From positions 1 through 55,251 of the forward strand of contig NZ_JADILJ010000025.1 of assembly GCF_017355185.1 (NCBI RefSeq): a DNA stretch of 55,251 nt. Direction: 5' to 3'. Below, in pieces: positions 6,032 through 14,371 of this stretch (position 1 is the stretch's first letter; each line of letters begins with the position of its first letter). Below the pieces are notes generated by a model. It saw nothing but the letters and a program-made list of their open reading frames with translations, ran no database searches and was not told where the DNA came from. This DNA is from Rathayibacter sp. SD072. GTDB taxonomy: Bacteria; Actinomycetota; Actinomycetes; Actinomycetales; Microbacteriaceae. The position numbers were made by a program, and so were the translations under genes.

Positions 6032-7315
<1,284 letters not shown>

Positions 7316-7319
7316 GCCG

Positions 7320-8585
7320 GTGATCCGCTACGCGCCGGCGGTCCTCCTCGGGAGGGCCGCCCGCTTCGCGGCACGCCTCCGGAAGCCCGGCGGAGGATCC
7401 GCCGTGCCCGGGCTCGTCGTCAACCGCGTCGCTCCCGGGTTCCTGCCCGCGGTCCTCGACGGCTTCCCCGAGGGGCTCGTCGTCGTCACCGGGTCGGCCG
7501 GCAAGTCGACGACCACGAAGATGCTGGTCGCCGTCCTCCGCGCCCACGGGCTGAGCGTGTTCACCAACCCGTCGACCGCCAACATCGCGCAGGGCCTCAC
7601 CTCCGCCCTCCTGGAGCGGACGGACCTGCGGGGACGCATCGACGCGGACATCGCCGTCCTCGAGATGGACGAGGGGCACGGGGCGCGGCTCGCTCCCCGC
7701 ATGCGCCCCCGCGTCGTCGTGCTCACCAACGTCGTGGTCGATCAGATCGACCGCTTCTTCGACCCCTCGATGGTCGCGCGGATGCTCGCCTCGATCTCGG
7801 AGCGGGCGACCGGTCGGGTCGTGCTCAACGCCGACGACCGCCACGTGGCCGACATCGCGACGAGCCTCCCCGCCGATCGGGTGCAGTGGTACGGAGTCGC
7901 TCCGGCCGTCCGCGCCGCCGCTCCCGGCGGACTCGGCTACGCGGCGGAGGCAGCGACGGGAACGGACCGCGCGACGACGATCGTCTCCGCTACGAACGGG
8001 GCGGCGGCCGAGATCTTGAGCGACGGGGTCCTGCTCGACATCGGACTCCCGGCGCGCGGGATCCACTACGCCGTGGACGCCGCCGCCGCCGTCTCGACCG
8101 CGCGCGCCGTGCTCGGCGACCGCTTCGACGCGGACACCGCCTCCGCCGCCCTCTCCTCGATCGCTCCGGTGTTCGGACGAGGAGAGGTCGTCGTGGTCCG
8201 CGGCCAGGAGGTCGAGTTCGTCCTGGTGCAGAACCCGGCGAGCTACCGGCTGAACATCTCCGAGATCCCGACGGGGACCGAGCAGATCATGCTCGCCATC
8301 GGCTCCGACGTGCGGGATCCCTCGTACTTCTGGCCCGTCGACACGTCCGGCCTCGGAAGGGTCCGCGTGGTCTCGGGATCCAAGGCCCACGAGGCGGCGC
8401 TCCACCTGCAGTACGACGGAGTCGCGATCGACGCCCTCGACGAGGATCTGGGCCGCGCACTCGATGGCTTCCTGGCGCTGCCGGCACCGTCGACCGGGCG
8501 CAAGACGATCGTCTTCTCCGCCGACTCGATGCGCCGGACCCGCGCTCACCTCCAGCTCACCTCCAACCGCGAGGAGACCTCGTGA
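7320..8585 (+). CDS. murT: MurT-type Mur ligase (lipid II D-Glu alpha-carboxyl ligase), cysteine-free variant
   Basis: 421 aa, GTG start 4 nt after sigA. MurT normally activates the alpha-carboxyl of D-Glu in lipid II with ATP and receives ammonia from GatD. The Mur ligase P-loop VTGSAGKSTTTKM has its lysine at 62; NPSTANIAQGL, LEMDEGHG and VVVLTNVVVDQIDRF follow. The C-terminal DUF1727-like domain has DPSYFWPVD (D333), which appears to match the conserved DVSWxWDVD block. Oddity: there is no cysteine anywhere, so the Cys4 zinc ribbon of known MurT proteins is absent. It overlaps gatD by 4 nt, so the two are co-translated. Confidence 0.88.
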   Translation: MIRYAPAVLLGRAARFAARLRKPGGGSAVPGLVVNRVAPGFLPAVLDGFPEGLVVVTGSAGKSTTTKMLVAVLRAHGLSVFTNPSTANIAQGLTSALLERTDLRGRIDADIAVLEMDEGHGARLAPRMRPRVVVLTNVVVDQIDRFFDPSMVARMLASISERATGRVVLNADDRHVADIATSLPADRVQWYGVAPAVRAAAPGGLGYAAEAATGTDRATTIVSATNGAAAEILSDGVLLDIGLPARGIHYAVDAAAAVSTARAVLGDRFDADTASAALSSIAPVFGRGEVVVVRGQEVEFVLVQNPASYRLNISEIPTGTEQIMLAIGSDVRDPSYFWPVDTSGLGRVRVVSGSKAHEAALHLQYDGVAIDALDEDLGRALDGFLALPAPSTGRKTIVFSADSMRRTRAHLQLTSNREETS

Positions 8586-9307
8586 CCTCTCTGCGGATCG
8601 GCGTGCTCGCCCCCGACGTCCTGGACAGCAACGGCGATGCGGCGAACGCCCGCGTCCTCGTCGCTCGGGCGCGATGGGCCGGACTCGATGCGGACCTCGT
8701 CCCGCTGCGTCACCGGGACGACTTCCGCGACCGTCCCGACGTGCTCGTCGCCGGCACCGGGGCCGATGAGGACCTCCCGGGGGTCCTCGACGTGCTCCGC
8801 GACGTCGATGCCACCGTGCGGGGCTGGGCCGACTCCGGGACCGAGTTCGTCGCGATCGGGGCGGGCTGGGAGCTGCTCGCGCAGTCGTTCGCGACCGCGT
8901 CGGGCATCGTGCAGGGGATCGGCGTCTTCCCGGGCCGCGCCGTCCCCGCGGCCGCCCGCGCCACCGACGATCTGGTCGTCGAATCGCCCGCCGGCGTCCT
9001 GGTGGGCTTCGAGAACCATCTGCGGCGCTTCGAGGGGATCGACCCCGGCTCCGTGCTCGGTCGTGTCCTGCACGGGACCGGCGACGGGGAGGGACTCGAG
9101 GGCCACCTCGCCGGATCACTGCTGGGCACACACCTGCACGGTCCGCTGCTCGCGAAGAACCCGGTGCTCGCCGACGCGATCCTGACGCGGATCGCCGAGC
9201 GCAACGGCCTGGAGTACGCGGTCGTGGATCCGCGTCTCGTCCGTGCCGATGAAACAGCTCGAGCCGCCCGCGAGGTCATCGCGAAGCGGCTCGGCGTCGA
9301 CCTGTAG
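8582..9307 (+). CDS. gatD: GatD-type class I amidotransferase-like subunit lacking the catalytic cysteine
   Basis: 241 aa, GTG start in a GTGA overlap with murT. Canonical GatD hydrolyses glutamine and passes ammonia to MurT; it uses Cys94 in a GICGGYQ-type elbow and a later His. Here the elbow reads AIGAGWELL, with Ala (codon GCG, 8861-8863) at residue 94. The downstream GTHLHGPLL keeps the histidine (about 186), and VGFENHLRRF keeps the conserved GFENH block, so the fold is intact. The protein has no cysteine at all. Glutaminase activity is therefore unlikely; it may be a structural or amine-delivery partner of MurT. Confidence 0.87.
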   Translation: MTSLRIGVLAPDVLDSNGDAANARVLVARARWAGLDADLVPLRHRDDFRDRPDVLVAGTGADEDLPGVLDVLRDVDATVRGWADSGTEFVAIGAGWELLAQSFATASGIVQGIGVFPGRAVPAAARATDDLVVESPAGVLVGFENHLRRFEGIDPGSVLGRVLHGTGDGEGLEGHLAGSLLGTHLHGPLLAKNPVLADAILTRIAERNGLEYAVVDPRLVRADETARAAREVIAKRLGVDL

Positions 9308-9355: not shown

Positions 9356-9589
9356 TCAGGGGCGCTGCTCCTCGAAGAGCCGCGCGGACTCGTCGTGCCA
9401 GCTCTGAGCGATGCTGGAGAGCTTCTCCTGGTACTTCTTGCCGTGGTGGGCGCAGAACAGCAGTTCTCCGCTGTTCACGACGACGCGGATGTACGCCTGG
9501 GCTCCACAGCTGTCGCAGCGGTCGGCAGCGGAGAGCTGGTGGGCACCCGCGAGCTCGTCCACGCCAGTAGGGGTTGCGGTGGTCGACAT
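9356..9589 (-). CDS. Small zinc-ribbon protein (DUF7455-like)
   Basis: 77 aa. CDSCGAQAYIRV with a later CAHHGKKY gives a CxxC...CxxH metal-binding pattern typical of a small, widely conserved actinobacterial family that often neighbours sigA and gyrase-type genes. AGGAGG lies 7 nt before the ATG. The C-terminal half is amphipathic (KLSSIAQSWHDESARLF). Function is unknown; nucleic-acid or polymerase contact would be a guess. It is divergent from parE across 192 bp. Confidence 0.8.
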   Translation of the reverse strand: MSTTATPTGVDELAGAHQLSAADRCDSCGAQAYIRVVVNSGELLFCAHHGKKYQEKLSSIAQSWHDESARLFEEQRP

Positions 9590-9769
9590 GACTTGGCCTC
9601 CTGCACTCGGTCTTCGATCTCTGCTTAGTGGAACCCATCCAAGCACGCGATTGTTTCCGCACCGAGACGATCGGAGGGCATTTCGCTGTGCGCGTAGGCC
9701 CGCCGGATCACTGGCGCTCGGTGCAGGGCACCGCCCGGGTCGCGTCCCGGAGTGAGGGTTCCGCGAAAG

Positions 9770-9775
9770 TAAACT
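9770..9775 (+). promoter_or_regulatory. -10 box TAAACT of parE, leaderless layout
   Basis: TAAACT is followed by exactly 6 nt (GGAGGA) and then ATG. GGAGG sits 1 nt from the ATG, too close for normal Shine-Dalgarno use, so a leaderless transcript explains the start better. Confidence 0.5.
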
Positions 9776-9781
9776 GGAGGA

Positions 9782-11863
9782 ATGGCCTCCACCGACTACT
9801 CCGCCCGGCACCTCTCCGTCCTGGAAGGCCTCGAGGCGGTCCGGAAGCGGCCGGGCATGTACATCGGCTCGACCGATTCACGCGGCCTGATGCACTGCCT
9901 GTGGGAGATCATCGACAACTCCGTCGACGAGGCACTCGCGGGGCACGGCACCGAGATCAGCGTCGTCCTCCACGCCGACGGCAGCGTGGAGGTGCGAGAC
10001 CGCGCGCGCGGGATCCCGGTCGACATCGAGCCCAAGACCGGCCTGTCCGGTGTCGAGGTCGTCTTCACCAAGCTGCACGCCGGCGGCAAGTTCGGCTCCG
10101 GCTCCTACGCGGCCTCGGGCGGCCTGCACGGTGTGGGCGCCTCCGTGGTCAACGCTCTCTCGGAGCGGCTCGACGTCGAGGTCGACCGCAACGGCCGCAC
10201 CTACCGCATGTCGTTCCACCGCGGCGAGCCCGGTCGCTTCGCGGATGCGGGGGAGCCCACTCCGGACGCGCCGTTCACGCCCTTCGAGAACGGCTCGGAG
10301 CTCGCCGTCGTCGGCAAGGTCGCGAGAGGAGTCACCGGCACCCGCGTGCGCTACTGGGCCGACCGCCAGATCTTCACGAAGGGCGCGGCCTTCCAGACGG
10401 ACGATCTCGTCACGCGCGCACGGCAGACGGCGTTCCTGGTTCCCGGGCTCACCCTCGACATCGTCGACGACCGGGAGGACGAGCGGCGCGCCGAGATGTT
10501 CCGCTACGACGGCGGCATCTCGGAGTTCGTCGAGTTCCTCGCGCCCGATTCCGCCGTGACCGACGTGCTCCGTCTGACCGGCACCGGGACCTTCACCGAG
10601 AACGTCCCCGTGCTCACCCCGGGTGGCGCCATGGTGTCCACCGAGGTGGAGCGCAGCTGCGAGGTCGACATCGCCCTGCGCTGGGGCACCGGCTACGAGA
10701 CGGTGATGCGGAGCTTCGTCAACATCATCGCCACGCCCAAGGGAGGCACGCATCAGACCGGCTTCGAGCAGGGACTGCTCAAGCTGCTCCGCTCCCAGGT
10801 CGAGGCGAACGCGCGCCGGCTGAAGGCGGGCTCGGACAAGGTCGAGAAGGACGACGTGCTCGCCGGCCTCACGGCGGTGCTCACGGTCCGTCTCCCCGAG
10901 CCGCAGTTCGAGGGCCAGACGAAGGAGATCCTCGGCACCCCCGCCGTGCGCGCCATCGTCGCGCAGACGGTCGGCTCGACACTCGGCGCCGTCTTCTCCT
11001 CGGCGAAGCGCGAGGACAAGACGCAGATGTCCCAGCTGCTCGAGAAGGTCGTCGCCGAGATGAAGTCGCGCATCTCGGCGCGCGCGCACAAGGAGACGCA
11101 GCGCCGCAAGAACGCGCTGGAATCGTCGTCGCTGCCCGCGAAGCTCGTCGACTGCCGCAGCAACGACGTCGAGAACAGCGAGCTCTTCATCGTCGAGGGC
11201 GACTCCGCCCTCGGCACCGCGAAGCTCGCGCGCAACAGCGAGTACCAGGCACTGCTGCCGATCCGGGGCAAGATCCTGAACGTGCAGAAGGCGAGCGTCG
11301 CCGACATGCTCTCGAACACGGAGTGCGCCTCGATGATCCAGGTCATCGGCGCGGGCTCGGGTCGCTCGTTCGACCTGTCGGTGGCGCGCTACGGCAAGAT
11401 CATCCTGATGAGCGACGCCGACGTCGACGGCGCGCACATCCGCACCCTCCTGCTCACGCTGTTCTTCCGCTACATGCGGCCGCTGGTCGAGGCGGGCCGG
11501 GTGTTCGCGGCCGTGCCTCCGCTGCACCGCGTGGTCGTGATGAACGCGGGCAAGAAGCCGAACGAGACGATCTACACGTACTCCGAGAAGGAGCTGCAGA
11601 GCGTGCTCGCCGCCCTGGCGAAGGCGGGGCGGCGATTCCAGGACCCGATCCAGCGCTACAAGGGCCTCGGCGAGATGGATGCGGATCAGCTCGCCACGAC
11701 GACGATGGACCGCGCCCGCCGCACGCTGCGCCGAGTCCGCGTGTCCGACGCCGAGAACGCGGGCCGGGTCTTCGAGCTGCTGATGGGCAACGAGGTGGCG
11801 CCGCGGAAGGACTTCATCGTCCGCGGATCCGAGACGCTCTCGCGCGACCGCATCGACGTGTGA
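9782..11863 (+). CDS. parE: Type IIA topoisomerase B subunit (ParE/GyrB-like)
   Basis: 693 aa ATPase subunit. The GHKL domain shows LEGLEAVRKRPGMYIG, DNSVDEAL (Mg/ATP binding) and GGLHGVGASVVNAL. The TOPRIM domain shows VEGDSALG (about 471) and DADVDG (about 545) for Mg binding, then QRYKGLGEMDADQL. It pairs with the A subunit that converges on it. Gyrase proper is usually encoded beside dnaA/recF in actinobacteria, so this second locus near sigA is most likely topoisomerase IV (decatenation). Gyrase B cannot be excluded without the rest of the genome. Confidence 0.92.
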   Translation: MASTDYSARHLSVLEGLEAVRKRPGMYIGSTDSRGLMHCLWEIIDNSVDEALAGHGTEISVVLHADGSVEVRDRARGIPVDIEPKTGLSGVEVVFTKLHAGGKFGSGSYAASGGLHGVGASVVNALSERLDVEVDRNGRTYRMSFHRGEPGRFADAGEPTPDAPFTPFENGSELAVVGKVARGVTGTRVRYWADRQIFTKGAAFQTDDLVTRARQTAFLVPGLTLDIVDDREDERRAEMFRYDGGISEFVEFLAPDSAVTDVLRLTGTGTFTENVPVLTPGGAMVSTEVERSCEVDIALRWGTGYETVMRSFVNIIATPKGGTHQTGFEQGLLKLLRSQVEANARRLKAGSDKVEKDDVLAGLTAVLTVRLPEPQFEGQTKEILGTPAVRAIVAQTVGSTLGAVFSSAKREDKTQMSQLLEKVVAEMKSRISARAHKETQRRKNALESSSLPAKLVDCRSNDVENSELFIVEGDSALGTAKLARNSEYQALLPIRGKILNVQKASVADMLSNTECASMIQVIGAGSGRSFDLSVARYGKIILMSDADVDGAHIRTLLLTLFFRYMRPLVEAGRVFAAVPPLHRVVVMNAGKKPNETIYTYSEKELQSVLAALAKAGRRFQDPIQRYKGLGEMDADQLATTTMDRARRTLRRVRVSDAENAGRVFELLMGNEVAPRKDFIVRGSETLSRDRIDV

Positions 11864-11887
11864 CCGTCCCGGGCCCGACGGCGGTCA
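11861..11887. terminator. Convergent dyad between parE and parC
   Basis: CCGTC and GACGG pair around an 8-nt loop, and the outer TGACCG/CGGTCA includes both stop codons. This is a small symmetric element suited to bidirectional termination. Confidence 0.35.
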
Positions 11888-14371
11888 GAGCAGCTCGGGA
11901 GCCGCGCCGATCGTCGCCACGGGAGCCGAGAGCGGCACTCCCGATCCGTCGCGCTTCATGCCGGACTCCGGCAGTGCCGCGACGGACCCGTCGGCCTCGA
12001 GGGCGTGCGCCGGGCCCGGACCGACCCAGGCGACCCCGAGGGCCGTCTCGCCCTTGAGGAAGCGCTGGGCGCGGACACCGCCGGTCGCCCGGCCCTTGGA
12101 CGGGAACTCCGAGAACGGCGAGACCTTCGCGCTGCCCGTGTCGGTGCCGGTCAGCGCCCAGCTGTCGACCGCGACGGTCGCGACGACCGCGTCCTCGCGG
12201 TCGTCCGCCTCGACCACGGCGAAGTGCACGACCTCGTCGGTCTCGCCGAGCTTGACTCCCGCCATGCCCCCCGCTGTCCGGCCCTGGGGCCGCACCGCCG
12301 ACGCCGGGAAGCGCAGGAGCTGGGCCTCCCCGGTGACGAAGACCAGTTCGTCCTCGTCGCCGGCGGGCGCCGCTCCCACGACCGCGTCCTTGGGTTTGAG
12401 CGCGATGAGCTCGACGTCGGGCCGGTTCTGCAGCTCGGCCGCCGACACCCTCTTCACGACTCCCTGGAGCGTGCCGAGGGCGATCGGGCGCGTGTCGTCG
12501 AGCGCCACCAGAGCGAGCACGCGCTCGTCCTTGCCGAGCGCCGGGAGGTAGTCCGCCATGCGGACGCCGGCGCCGAGCTGGACGGAGGACGACGGGACGG
12601 AGGGGACGTCGACGGGGGAGAAGCGGAGCAGTCGTCCCGCGCTCGTCACGGCGCCGATGTCGGTGCGGCTCGTCGTGTCGAGGGCGCTGAGGACGGCGTC
12701 GTGCTTGCTGCGCCGGCTCGCCCTGACCGGCTGCGCCGCCGCCTCGGGATCGCGGTCGACGCGGACCATGCGGCCGGTGGTGCTGAGATGCACCCGGCAC
12801 GGCACGTCGGCGATCTCGAGTACTGCGGCGGTCTTGCGCCCGGTGGTCGCGACGGAGGGGCGCGCCTCGGTGAGGAGCGTGCGACGAGGGGTGCCCAGGC
12901 GCTGCGCGACGTCGTCCAGCTCCTCCGACACGAGCGTCTCGATCCGGCTGCGGCTCGAGAGCAGCGCCTCCAGCTCGGCGATCTCGGCGAGAAGAGTGTC
13001 GCGCTCGGTCTCGAGCTCGATCCGGGAGAACCTCGTCAGCCGGCGCAGCTGGAGCTCGAGGATGTAATCGGCCTGGATCGTGCTGAGGTCGAAGACCTCG
13101 ATGAGGCGCGCTCTGGCCGCAGCGGTGTCGTCGCTCGCGCGGATCAGCTGGATGACCTCGTCGATGTCGACGATGGCCACGAGGAGTCCCTCGACGAGGT
13201 GCAGGCGCTCCTGGCGCTTGCGGAGGCGGTACTGCGACCGCCGGGTCACGACGGTGACGCGGTGGCCCACGTAGACCTGGAGGAGCTCCCGGAGTCCGAG
13301 CGTGCGCGGCTGCCCGTCGACCAGGGCCACGTTGTTGATCGCGAAGCCGTCCTCGAGAGGCGTGTAGCGGTAGAGCTGCTCGAGGACCGCCTCCGGGCTG
13401 AAGCCCGTCTTGATGCCGATCACGAGACGCAGGCCGTTGTCGCGGTCCGTGAGGTCGGTGACGTCCGAGATGCCGCTGAGCTTCTTGTTCTGAACGCCGT
13501 CCTTGATCTTGTCGATGACCTTCTCGGCCCCGACGAGGTAGGGGAGCTCGGTGACGACCAGCCCGGACTTCCGGGCGGTGATGCTCTCGACGGAGACCCG
13601 AGCCCGGGTCTTGAAGCTCCCGCGCCCGGTCGCGTAGGCGTCGCGCACGCCGGCGAGACCGACGATCGTCCCGCCGCTGGGGAAGTCGGGACCCGGCACG
13701 AAGGACATGAGGTCCTCGAGCGAGGCCTCCGGGTGGGCGATCAGGTGCCGCGCCGCTCCGATCACCTCGATCAGGTTGTGCGGCGCCATGTTCGTCGCCA
13801 TGCCGACCGCGATACCGCTGGCGCCGTTGACCAGCAGGTTCGGGAACGCCGACGGCAGGACCTCGGGCTGCTGGTGCGAGTTGTCGTAGTTGGGGACGAA
13901 GTCGACGACGTCCTCGCCCAGGTGCTCGGTCATCGCCATGGCGGCGGGCGCGAGCCGCGCCTCGGTGTAGCGGGCGGCCGCGGGGCCGTCGTCGAGCGAG
14001 CCGAAGTTGCCGTGGCCGTCGACCAGGGGGACCCGCAGGGTGAAGGGCTGGGCGAGGCGCACGAGCGAGTCGTAGATCGAGGCATCGCCGTGCGGGTGCA
14101 GCTTGCCCATGACCTCGCCGGTCACCCGCGCCGACTTGACGTGGCCGTGGTCCGGCCGCAGGCCCATCTCGCTCATCATGTAGAGGATGCGGCGCTGCAC
14201 CGGCTTCAGTCCGTCGCGGGCATCGGGCAGCGCCCGCGAGTAGATGACCGAGTAGGCGTACTCGAGGAACGACCCCTCCATCTCGGTCGAGACGTCGACG
14301 TCCTCGATGCGCTCGGACAGCGAGGAGTGTGCGGCCGGAGTGGATCCGGACGAGGGGGATGCGGCGTTCAT
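11885..14371 (-). CDS. parC: Type IIA topoisomerase A subunit (ParC/GyrA-like)
   Basis: 828 aa. The breakage-reunion domain has the catalytic tyrosine in [12 protein letters not shown] (Y135) and the quinolone region [17 protein letters not shown], with Ala97 at the position of E. coli GyrA Ser83, the natural state in several actinobacteria. The C-terminal beta-pinwheel repeats follow (for example [32 protein letters not shown]). I see no canonical GyrA box (QRRGGKG), which favours the ParC assignment. It is transcribed towards parE rather than in an operon with it. A GAAGTGAG stretch lies before the ATG. Confidence 0.92.

What the first reader, a model, noticed from the sequence alone, without database searches (positions are those of the whole stretch)
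7320..9307. MurT/GatD pair without the glutaminase cysteine: possible amino-acid ligase for B-type peptidoglycan
Seen: GatD residue 94 is Ala (GCG at 8861-8863) in AIGAGWELL, where known GatD enzymes have Cys94; the His of GTHLHGPLL and the GFENH block remain. Neither MurT nor GatD contains any cysteine, so the MurT Cys4 ribbon is missing too, while the P-loop and the D333 region persist. Known: MurT-GatD amidates the D-Glu alpha-carboxyl of lipid II, and Microbacteriaceae have B-type walls cross-linked through that carboxyl by a diamino acid or a glycine-containing bridge. Inference: the pair no longer makes D-isoglutamine and instead attaches another amine, giving the missing first step of B-type cross-bridge synthesis. 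I know of no description of this.
Basis: partly seen in the sequence, partly recalled or inferred. Interest (0 to 1): 0.9.

Follow-up and report, generated by a model that had tools for sequence, protein, structure and literature searches.

The report
Wall-building enzyme pair without its glutaminase
Many bacteria of one soil and plant family carry a cell-wall enzyme pair that has lost the part which makes ammonia but kept the part which builds amide bonds, at a chromosomal spot where relatives keep other bond-making enzymes instead, so it probably attaches an amino acid that cross-links their unusual cell walls.

Summary
It is no error. Of 120 same-family genomes (Microbacteriaceae) 77 carry this MurT type; in 71 a GatD without Cys was read. 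Of 87 GatDs read elsewhere in the phylum 85 keep Cys. Seven MurT active-site residues are kept in 71 of 71, while the ammonia-gate Arg is lost in all 71. On the tree these MurTs form one branch; 68 of 72 pairs have sigA beside them. A differently derived Cys-less pair sits at the sigA site in 7 of 120 genomes. Elsewhere that site often holds a CofE-fold ligase, mostly with an ATP-grasp protein: of 59 named loci 31 have MurT*, 24 CofE-like, none both, with about seven switches. I read the pair as an ATP-dependent ligase joining an amino acid, probably a D-diamino acid, to the D-Glu alpha-carboxyl for B-type cross-links. Substrate and product are inferred; no assay or structure model was available.

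The parts
7320..8585 (+). murT* (421 aa): Mur-ligase-like ATP-dependent subunit; active-site core kept, no Cys
   Evidence: ORF; Pfam Mur_ligase_M 48.8 bits and MurT_C 23.4 bits, just under its cut-off of 25; NCBIfam MurT 86.6 of 800 bits; PDB matches; residue table
8582..9307 (+). gatD* (241 aa): glutaminase-fold subunit without the catalytic Cys
   Evidence: read from GTG 8582, overlapping murT; Pfam GATase_3 45.4 of 27 bits; PDB 5n9m/6gs2/6fqb matches; dN/dS 0.20-0.33 against three relatives
8858..8860 (+). Gly93 codon GGG: position of the catalytic Cys (S. aureus Cys94)
   Evidence: alignments
8861..8863 (+).
   Evidence: alignments
9137..9139 (+). His186 codon (S. aureus His189), kept here; lost in 21 of 72 Cys-less GatDs
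8957..8959 (+). Arg126 codon (S. aureus Arg128, glutamine capture), kept in 68 of 72 Cys-less GatDs
   Evidence: role from PMC6085368 passages
7491..7511 (+). P-loop GSAGKST
7668..7673 (+). Asp117-Glu118 (S. pneumoniae Asp112-Glu113), kept in 71 of 71
8316..8318 (+). Asp333 codon (S. aureus MurT Asp349)
6032..7315 (+). sigA-type primary sigma factor gene directly upstream; marks the site of the ligase cassettes (gene name recalled; no family scan run)
   Evidence: synteny; named scan
9356..9811 (-). small conserved ORF after gatD (called DUF7455 from recall), right border of the cassette
   Evidence: tblastn matches in relatives; no family scan was run on it
9782..11863 (+). gyrB/parE-type topoisomerase subunit gene (name recalled), border marker
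   Evidence: tblastn matches in relatives

Best explanation
MurT*/GatD* is an amino-acid ligase derived from the D-isoglutamine synthase. MurT* uses ATP to activate the alpha-carboxyl of D-Glu (stem position 2) of a lipid-linked wall precursor, as ordinary MurT does. GatD* no longer makes ammonia; it is a structural subunit and, in the bolder form, the binding pocket for an amino acid whose carboxylate is held by the kept Arg126. The nucleophile is the amine of an amino acid, most likely a D-diamino acid (Dab, Orn or Lys by genus), giving the one-residue bridge of B2-type peptidoglycan. Shown by sequence: loss of the nucleophile, conservation of the ligase core, purifying selection, a conserved site next to sigA, alternation with other ligase families. 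Inferred: substrate, product, and the role of the GatD* pocket.
For: (1) The 42 sampled MurTs whose GatD lacks Cys form one branch (SH-aLRT 100, quick tree of 101 rows) with no Cys-type row inside; the site is G53 A13 S3 N2 T1 in 72 GatD loci. Cys-to-Gly and Cys-to-Ser abolish amidation in S. aureus (PMC6113224, passages). (2) MurT P-loop Lys, Asn85, Asp112, Glu113, Arg140, Arg304 and Asp355 (S. pneumoniae numbers) are kept in 71 of 71; Arg135, said to close the ammonia gate in models (PMC6085368 passages), is in 33 of 33 Cys-type and 0 of 71 Cys-less proteins. (3) sigA lies in the stretch read for 68 of 72 Cys-less and 0 of 14 Cys-type family loci. (4) A second Cys-less lineage ('H-type': Cys to His, Gln in one named MAG; His to Ile or Leu) sits at the same site in 7 of 120 genomes, in none of which the window type was found. 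(5) At that site 31 of 59 named loci have MurT*, 24 a CofE-like ligase, 0 both; ATP-grasp with 22 of 24 CofE-like and 0 of 31 MurT*; 7 changes on a ParE tree. In the 120-genome panel MurT* 77, CofE-like 17, overlap 0. (6) Alanine-racemase-like genes lie near in 14 of 31 MurT* and 16 of 24 CofE-like loci. (7) Three genomes carry MurT*/GatD* and a Cys-type pair together, so the two are not simple alternatives.
Against: No assay, ligand or structure. His189 and Arg128 are mostly kept, so some amide chemistry in the pocket is not excluded. Not all of the active site is unchanged: the P-loop Thr is Ser in 68 of 71, Lys321 is Gln in 23 of 71. Carriers and non-carriers do not split cleanly by published wall subtype; the bridge details behind the one-/two-residue idea are recalled; two of 19 Microbacterium loci carry MurT*. 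Glaciihabitans is 'B10' in one table (PMC7033078, passages). Exclusivity has limits: the Glaciihabitans MAG RYN_57 has H-type at sigA and a window-type GatD elsewhere, and in G053 a CofE-like gene and a Cys-less MurT/GatD stand side by side. Of 40 sigA loci fetched from genomes without a clear window-type MurT, 19 show none of the cassettes. No diaminobutyrate transaminase over the cut-off was found in this genome.
Confidence: 0.6

Rival explanations
1. MurT* still makes D-isoglutamine, using free ammonia or ammonia from another glutaminase; GatD* is only a scaffold.
For: Seven MurT active-site residues are fully kept and the GatD* fold is retained; in most MurT*-bearing genomes no Cys-type GatD was found.
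Against: Cys mutants of S. aureus GatD abolish activity (PMC6113224 passages). The ammonia-gate Arg is lost in 71 of 71. Three genomes carry a Cys-type pair beside MurT*. The site alternates with CofE-like and ATP-grasp ligase families rather than with amidotransferases.
Confidence: 0.15
2. The pair attaches an amino acid to the D-Glu alpha-carboxyl, but glycine or another small group, or as a wall decoration rather than a cross-bridge.
For: Same residue and synteny evidence; Cys-less MurT-GatD fusions also occur in two genomes of another class whose wall type is unknown.
Against: Agromyces and Agreia, genera of named carriers, have B2gamma walls with diamino acids (PMC5217419, PMC5945732 passages); the other cassette, with two ligase families, fits glycine-containing bridges better (inference on recalled structures).
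Confidence: 0.15
3. The pair acts on another carboxyl or another precursor, e.g. in third-residue, hydroxyglutamate or secondary-polymer chemistry.
For: Three residues are missing next to the third-residue motif, before Asp333 (alignment); some Microbacteriaceae have 3-hydroxyglutamate (PMC5945732 passages).
Against: Asn85 and Asp112-Glu113, which place the acceptor carboxylate in MurT docking models (PMC6085368 passages), are kept in 71 of 71.
Confidence: 0.08
4. Sequence error or decaying pseudogene.
For: GatD* has higher dN than MurT* and ParE in three comparisons.
Against: The same state in 71 further loci in open frames; dN/dS 0.10-0.33 for MurT* and GatD*.
Confidence: 0.02

Closest known systems
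Lipid II isoglutaminyl synthase MurT/GatD (S. aureus, S. pneumoniae, M. tuberculosis)
   Same: Two-gene operon, homology over both subunits, MurT active-site residues, GatD His and Arg128
   Different: No glutaminase Cys; ammonia-gate Arg135 (0 of 71) and GatD Tyr17 (0 of 72) lost; NCBIfam equivalog scores far below cut-off (86.6 of 800, 76.6 of 450 bits); sits next to sigA
Mur ligases (MurC-F)
   Same: ATP-dependent joining of an amino acid to a carboxyl of the wall precursor (proposed); same central and C-terminal domains
   Different: No N-terminal UDP-binding domain (published for MurT, PMC6113224 passages); works with a GatD-fold partner
F420-0:gamma-glutamyl ligase (CofE) fold, PF01996
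   Same: Occupies the same sigA site in many genomes without MurT*; known members join amino acids by amide bonds (recalled)
   Different: Unrelated family; the one sigA-site member scanned scores 28.4 of 180.65 bits in the F420 equivalog model
ATP-grasp PF14397 (sugar-transfer associated ATP-grasp)
   Same: Near the CofE-like gene in 22 of 24 named loci and near H-type MurT/GatD in 4 of 7 unnamed loci
   Different: Not seen with window-type MurT* (0 of 31 named loci)

Membership tests
Lipid II isoglutaminyl synthase (MurT/GatD, glutamine-hydrolysing) | Homology of both subunits to solved MurT and GatD | tested here: met
Lipid II isoglutaminyl synthase (MurT/GatD, glutamine-hydrolysing) | Catalytic Cys of GatD | tested here: not met
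   Gly93
Lipid II isoglutaminyl synthase (MurT/GatD, glutamine-hydrolysing) | Catalytic His of GatD and Asp of MurT | tested here: met
   His186 and Asp333 present; the His is lost in 21 of 72 clade members
Lipid II isoglutaminyl synthase (MurT/GatD, glutamine-hydrolysing) | NCBIfam equivalog score over cut-off | tested here: not met
   MurT 86.6 of 800 bits, GatD 76.6 of 450 bits
Lipid II isoglutaminyl synthase (MurT/GatD, glutamine-hydrolysing) | Glutamine- and ATP-dependent amidation of D-Glu | not testable with these tools
   needs an assay
Mur-type ATP-dependent amide ligase (works like) | P-loop Lys, acceptor Asn, Asp-Glu pair, hinge Arg, C-terminal Asp | tested here: met
   71 of 71
Cys4 zinc-ribbon MurT subgroup | Cys tetrad in MurT | tested here: not met
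   no CxxC in 71 of 71; none in 25 of 33 Cys-type MurTs either, so not diagnostic
B-type cross-bridge ligase | Carriers have B-type walls with an amino acid on the D-Glu alpha-carboxyl | tested here: inconclusive
   Agromyces, Agreia and Cryobacterium B2gamma in print, but at genus level only; many relatives of B-type genera lack the pair

The most novel reading that the evidence does not exclude
The sigA neighbourhood of Microbacteriaceae is an exchangeable cross-bridge island. At least three separately derived ligase systems (window-type MurT*/GatD*, H-type MurT/GatD often with ATP-grasp, and a CofE-fold ligase mostly with ATP-grasp), with racemase- and transaminase-family genes, replace one another there and set which amino acid(s) are put on the alpha-carboxyl of D-Glu. 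This would supply the missing first step of B-type peptidoglycan and assign a CofE-fold enzyme to cell-wall synthesis.
Probability: 0.5. Interest if true: 0.93.

Novelty: new variant of a known kind. Interest (0 to 1): 0.85.

Why it matters
Peptidoglycan of type B, cross-linked through D-Glu, has long been used to classify actinobacteria, yet my searches (open-licence papers only) showed no enzyme for its first step. A glutaminase-dead MurT/GatD that takes an amino acid instead of ammonia would show how an amidotransferase becomes a ligase. The exchange of ligase families at one site would give a genomic test of wall chemistry in a large family that is now typed by hydrolysis and chromatography.

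Tried and rejected
Rejected: sequence error or pseudogene (family-wide pattern, dN/dS below 1). Rejected as argument: the missing Cys4 ribbon, absent in 25 of 33 Cys-type actinobacterial MurTs too. Rejected: 'every Microbacteriaceae genome has the pair' (77 of 120). Rejected: 'H-type is part of the same clade' (separate branch on the MurT tree, with a long-branch warning from the program). Tried without result: literature on Microcella putealis against M. alkaliphila; a review on wall diversity; a Subtercola genome paper; diaminobutyrate transaminase in the own genome (10 matches, none over cut-off).

Rows dropped and limits: L005 is the window's own copy and is inside the counts of 72 and 71. 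L049 and L093 were left out of MurT residue counts (fragmentary MurT). L185 (titled Stenotrophomonas, carries the CofE-like cassette) was left out of the 59 named loci; L177 and L216, titled Actinomycetes and Cellulomonadaceae MAGs, were kept. L162, L174, L177, L179 and L197 had no long ParE and are not in the ParE tree. Only 50 of the 80 named loci were handed to the whole-genome GatD search. Outside the family, 20 of 46 strong order-level hits and 70 of 74 phylum-level hits (the 70 include the window) were fetched. sigA loci of G061 and G065 were not fetched and G022 gave no sigA match; L117 and L144 are short.
Full report
What is there. The window holds sigA (6032-7315), murT (7320-8585) and gatD (8582-9307) on the + strand, followed by a small minus-strand ORF and a gyrB/parE-type gene (these neighbours are named from recall). 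MurT and GatD match the solved S. aureus and S. pneumoniae proteins. Neither contains a Cys. The nearest named relative found is Rathayibacter iranicus (MurT 83%, GatD 62%; ParE 94%), so the window is probably Rathayibacter or a close genus. One copy of the pair was found in this genome.

Family survey. In 120 genomes of the same family (own included; named relatives show it is Microbacteriaceae) GatD was found in 83 (E 1e-6) and MurT in 89 (E 1e-25). Of 85 GatD loci other than the window's, 71 lack the Cys and 14 have it. By genome, 77 of 120 carry the window-type MurT*; in 71 of these a Cys-less GatD was read, in 6 only the MurT was found. Seven carry a different Cys-less type (below), 17 a CofE-like gene, 12 only a Cys-type GatD, and 7 remain. 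Of those 7, G005 has another Cys-less variant. G054, G066 and the named Leifsonia aquatica hold both a Cys-less and a Cys-type pair.

Outside the family. In the same order 20 of 20 fetched GatDs (8 families) have the Cys, and none has sigA within the stretch read; these are 20 of 46 strong hits. Across the phylum 63 GatDs have Cys and His and 4 MurT-GatD fusions have Cys; two genomes are in both sets, so 85 distinct ones have Cys. The two exceptions are genomes of one genus in another class (f53) with fused, Cys-less MurT-GatD. Four of the 74 phylum-level hits were not fetched.

Residues. In 71 of 71 Cys-less MurTs (window included) the P-loop Lys, Asn85, Asp112, Glu113, Arg140, Arg304 and Asp355 (S. 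pneumoniae numbers) are kept; other positions vary, e.g. P-loop Thr to Ser in 68, Lys321 to Gln in 23. Arg135, which in models closes the gate between GatD and the MurT active site (PMC6085368, passages), is in 33 of 33 Cys-type and 0 of 71 Cys-less proteins. In GatD, Arg128, said to capture glutamine, is kept in 68 of 72 although the Cys is gone from all 72 (that is how the set was defined) and the His from 21; Tyr17 is in 34 of 34 Cys-type and 0 of 72. Published C94G and C94S mutants of S. aureus GatD abolish amidation (PMC6113224, passages). Other class-specific positions are. dN/dS of MurT* and GatD* against three relatives is 0.10-0.33, of ParE 0.05-0.07, so both are under selection, GatD* more loosely.

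Descent and site. A quick MurT tree of 101 rows places all 42 sampled Cys-less MurTs on one branch (SH-aLRT 100), beside ordinary Cys-type MurTs of the order. sigA lies in the stretch read for 68 of 72 Cys-less pairs and for 0 of 14 Cys-type pairs of the family. In seven genomes the sigA site holds a different Cys-less pair, 'H-type', with FLFTHNALEVLG-like letters instead of the Cys motif and Ile or Leu instead of the catalytic His. Its MurT groups with the f53 fusions, not with MurT* (the program warns of long branches). Three genera hold MurT* and H-type in different species: g38, g43 and g48. One named MAG, Glaciihabitans RYN_57, has H-type at sigA and a window-type GatD elsewhere.

What stands there otherwise. 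In 22 of 24 named loci without either pair the gap between sigA and the next marker is still 1.7 kb or more; in two Leucobacter loci it is under 0.3 kb. Most hold a CofE-fold ligase (the L158 protein: PF01996, 44 bits, cut-off 25) and an ATP-grasp protein (PF14397, 152 bits, cut-off 31), often with an alanine-racemase-like gene and in a few loci a diaminobutyrate-transaminase-like gene or MurJ (one protein of each kind was scanned, the rest found with models built from these). Among 59 named loci (L185 left out) 31 have MurT*, 24 CofE-like, 1 H-type, 3 none (all Leucobacter), 0 both. ATP-grasp accompanies 22 of 24 CofE-like and 0 of 31 MurT* loci. A quick ParE tree of 55 rows needs 7 changes between MurT* and CofE-like; well-supported branches alone force 6 for the CofE-like label. 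ParE lies beside the site and could have moved with it. Swaps occur within Microbacterium, Microcella and Salinibacterium, and in the unnamed panel within genera g7, g9 and g13. In 120 genomes MurT* (77) and CofE-like (17) do not co-occur (Fisher p 2e-9, not corrected for kinship). Of 40 sigA loci fetched from genomes without a clear window-type MurT, 14 have CofE-like, 7 H-type and 19 neither, two of these being short stretches. The 20 sigA loci titled outside the family (L218-L237) show none of these genes at E 1e-7.

Links between the systems. In G053 a CofE-like gene, a MurT and a Cys-less GatD stand together away from sigA, and in G418 (f53) a CofE-like gene follows the Cys-less fusion; its sister G407 shows none there. 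CofE-like genes of this kind are rare in the phylum (8 of 158 genomes at E 1e-15). So the two ligase types look like parts of one pathway, but they may do successive steps in some genomes rather than always replacing one another.

Wall chemistry. In print (passages only): Agromyces aureus B2gamma (PMC5217419); Subtercola and Agreia B2gamma, Agreia with L-Dab and D-Orn (PMC5945732); Cryobacterium B2gamma, Glaciihabitans 'B10', Salinibacterium 'B' with Lys, Orn (PMC7033078); Microbacterium with D-Orn, L-Lys or Dab (PMC10757982) and type B (PMC11319209). From recall only: Microbacterium bridges contain Gly next to D-Glu; Curtobacterium, Clavibacter and Rathayibacter have a D-diamino acid alone. 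On that recall MurT* fits one-residue bridges and CofE-like plus ATP-grasp fits two-residue bridges; this is an inference, and the walls of the sampled strains were not looked up one by one.

Mechanism proposed. MurT* activates the D-Glu alpha-carboxyl with ATP; the missing glutaminase and the missing gate Arg fit an amino acid, not ammonia, as the nucleophile; Arg126 of GatD* may hold its carboxylate. Steps shown: residue losses and retentions, site, exclusivity with the limits named. Steps inferred: acceptor, donor and the role of GatD*. My odds: 0.95 that GatD* is no Cys glutaminase, 0.8 that MurT* is an ATP-dependent ligase on this carboxyl, 0.6 for the amino-acid bridge.

Novelty. Searches for GatD with MurT and Microbacteriaceae (0 papers), MurT/GatD with type B wall terms, cross-linkage type B with MurT, group B wall biosynthesis terms and Microbacteriaceae with ligase terms listed no paper that describes this, judged from titles and abstracts' starts. 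PMC6085368 (passages) states that murT-gatD is universally present in Actinobacteria; PF08353 finds no MurT in 22 of 29 Microbacteriaceae genomes chosen mainly for lack of earlier hits. The library holds open-licence papers only.

Noticed in passing
named sigA loci, e.g. L158 10407-12300, L168 10128-17000, L215 10499-15000: Between sigA and parE many Microbacteriaceae carry a CofE-like ligase, ATP-grasp, alanine-racemase-like and in a few loci diaminobutyrate-transaminase-like or MurJ genes: a likely wall-synthesis island.
   Followed up: partly
L347 4908-7133, L348 8823-11048: MurT-GatD fusion without glutaminase Cys or His in an actinobacterial genus of another class (f53); in L348 a CofE-like gene (11333-12028) follows directly.
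   Followed up: partly
L345 7104-10014 and L155: Genome G053 has CofE-like, MurT with CxxC pairs and a GatD lacking Cys and His in one cluster away from sigA.
   Followed up: partly
L346 8563-10634: Genome G005 (1.4 Mb) has a further MurT/GatD variant with Asn at the Cys site and Ala at the His site.
   Followed up: no
L352, L353, L354: In other phylum members a CofE-like gene lies beside an ORF that matches the transaminase model built here (86-93 bits).
   Followed up: no
L185: A contig titled Stenotrophomonas maltophilia carries a Microbacteriaceae-like sigA, CofE-like and ATP-grasp stretch; likely contamination of that assembly.
   Followed up: no
L085 (G015, 0.9 Mb genome): A strongly reduced genome of the family keeps the sigA-linked Cys-less pair, with Ser at the Cys site.
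   Followed up: no
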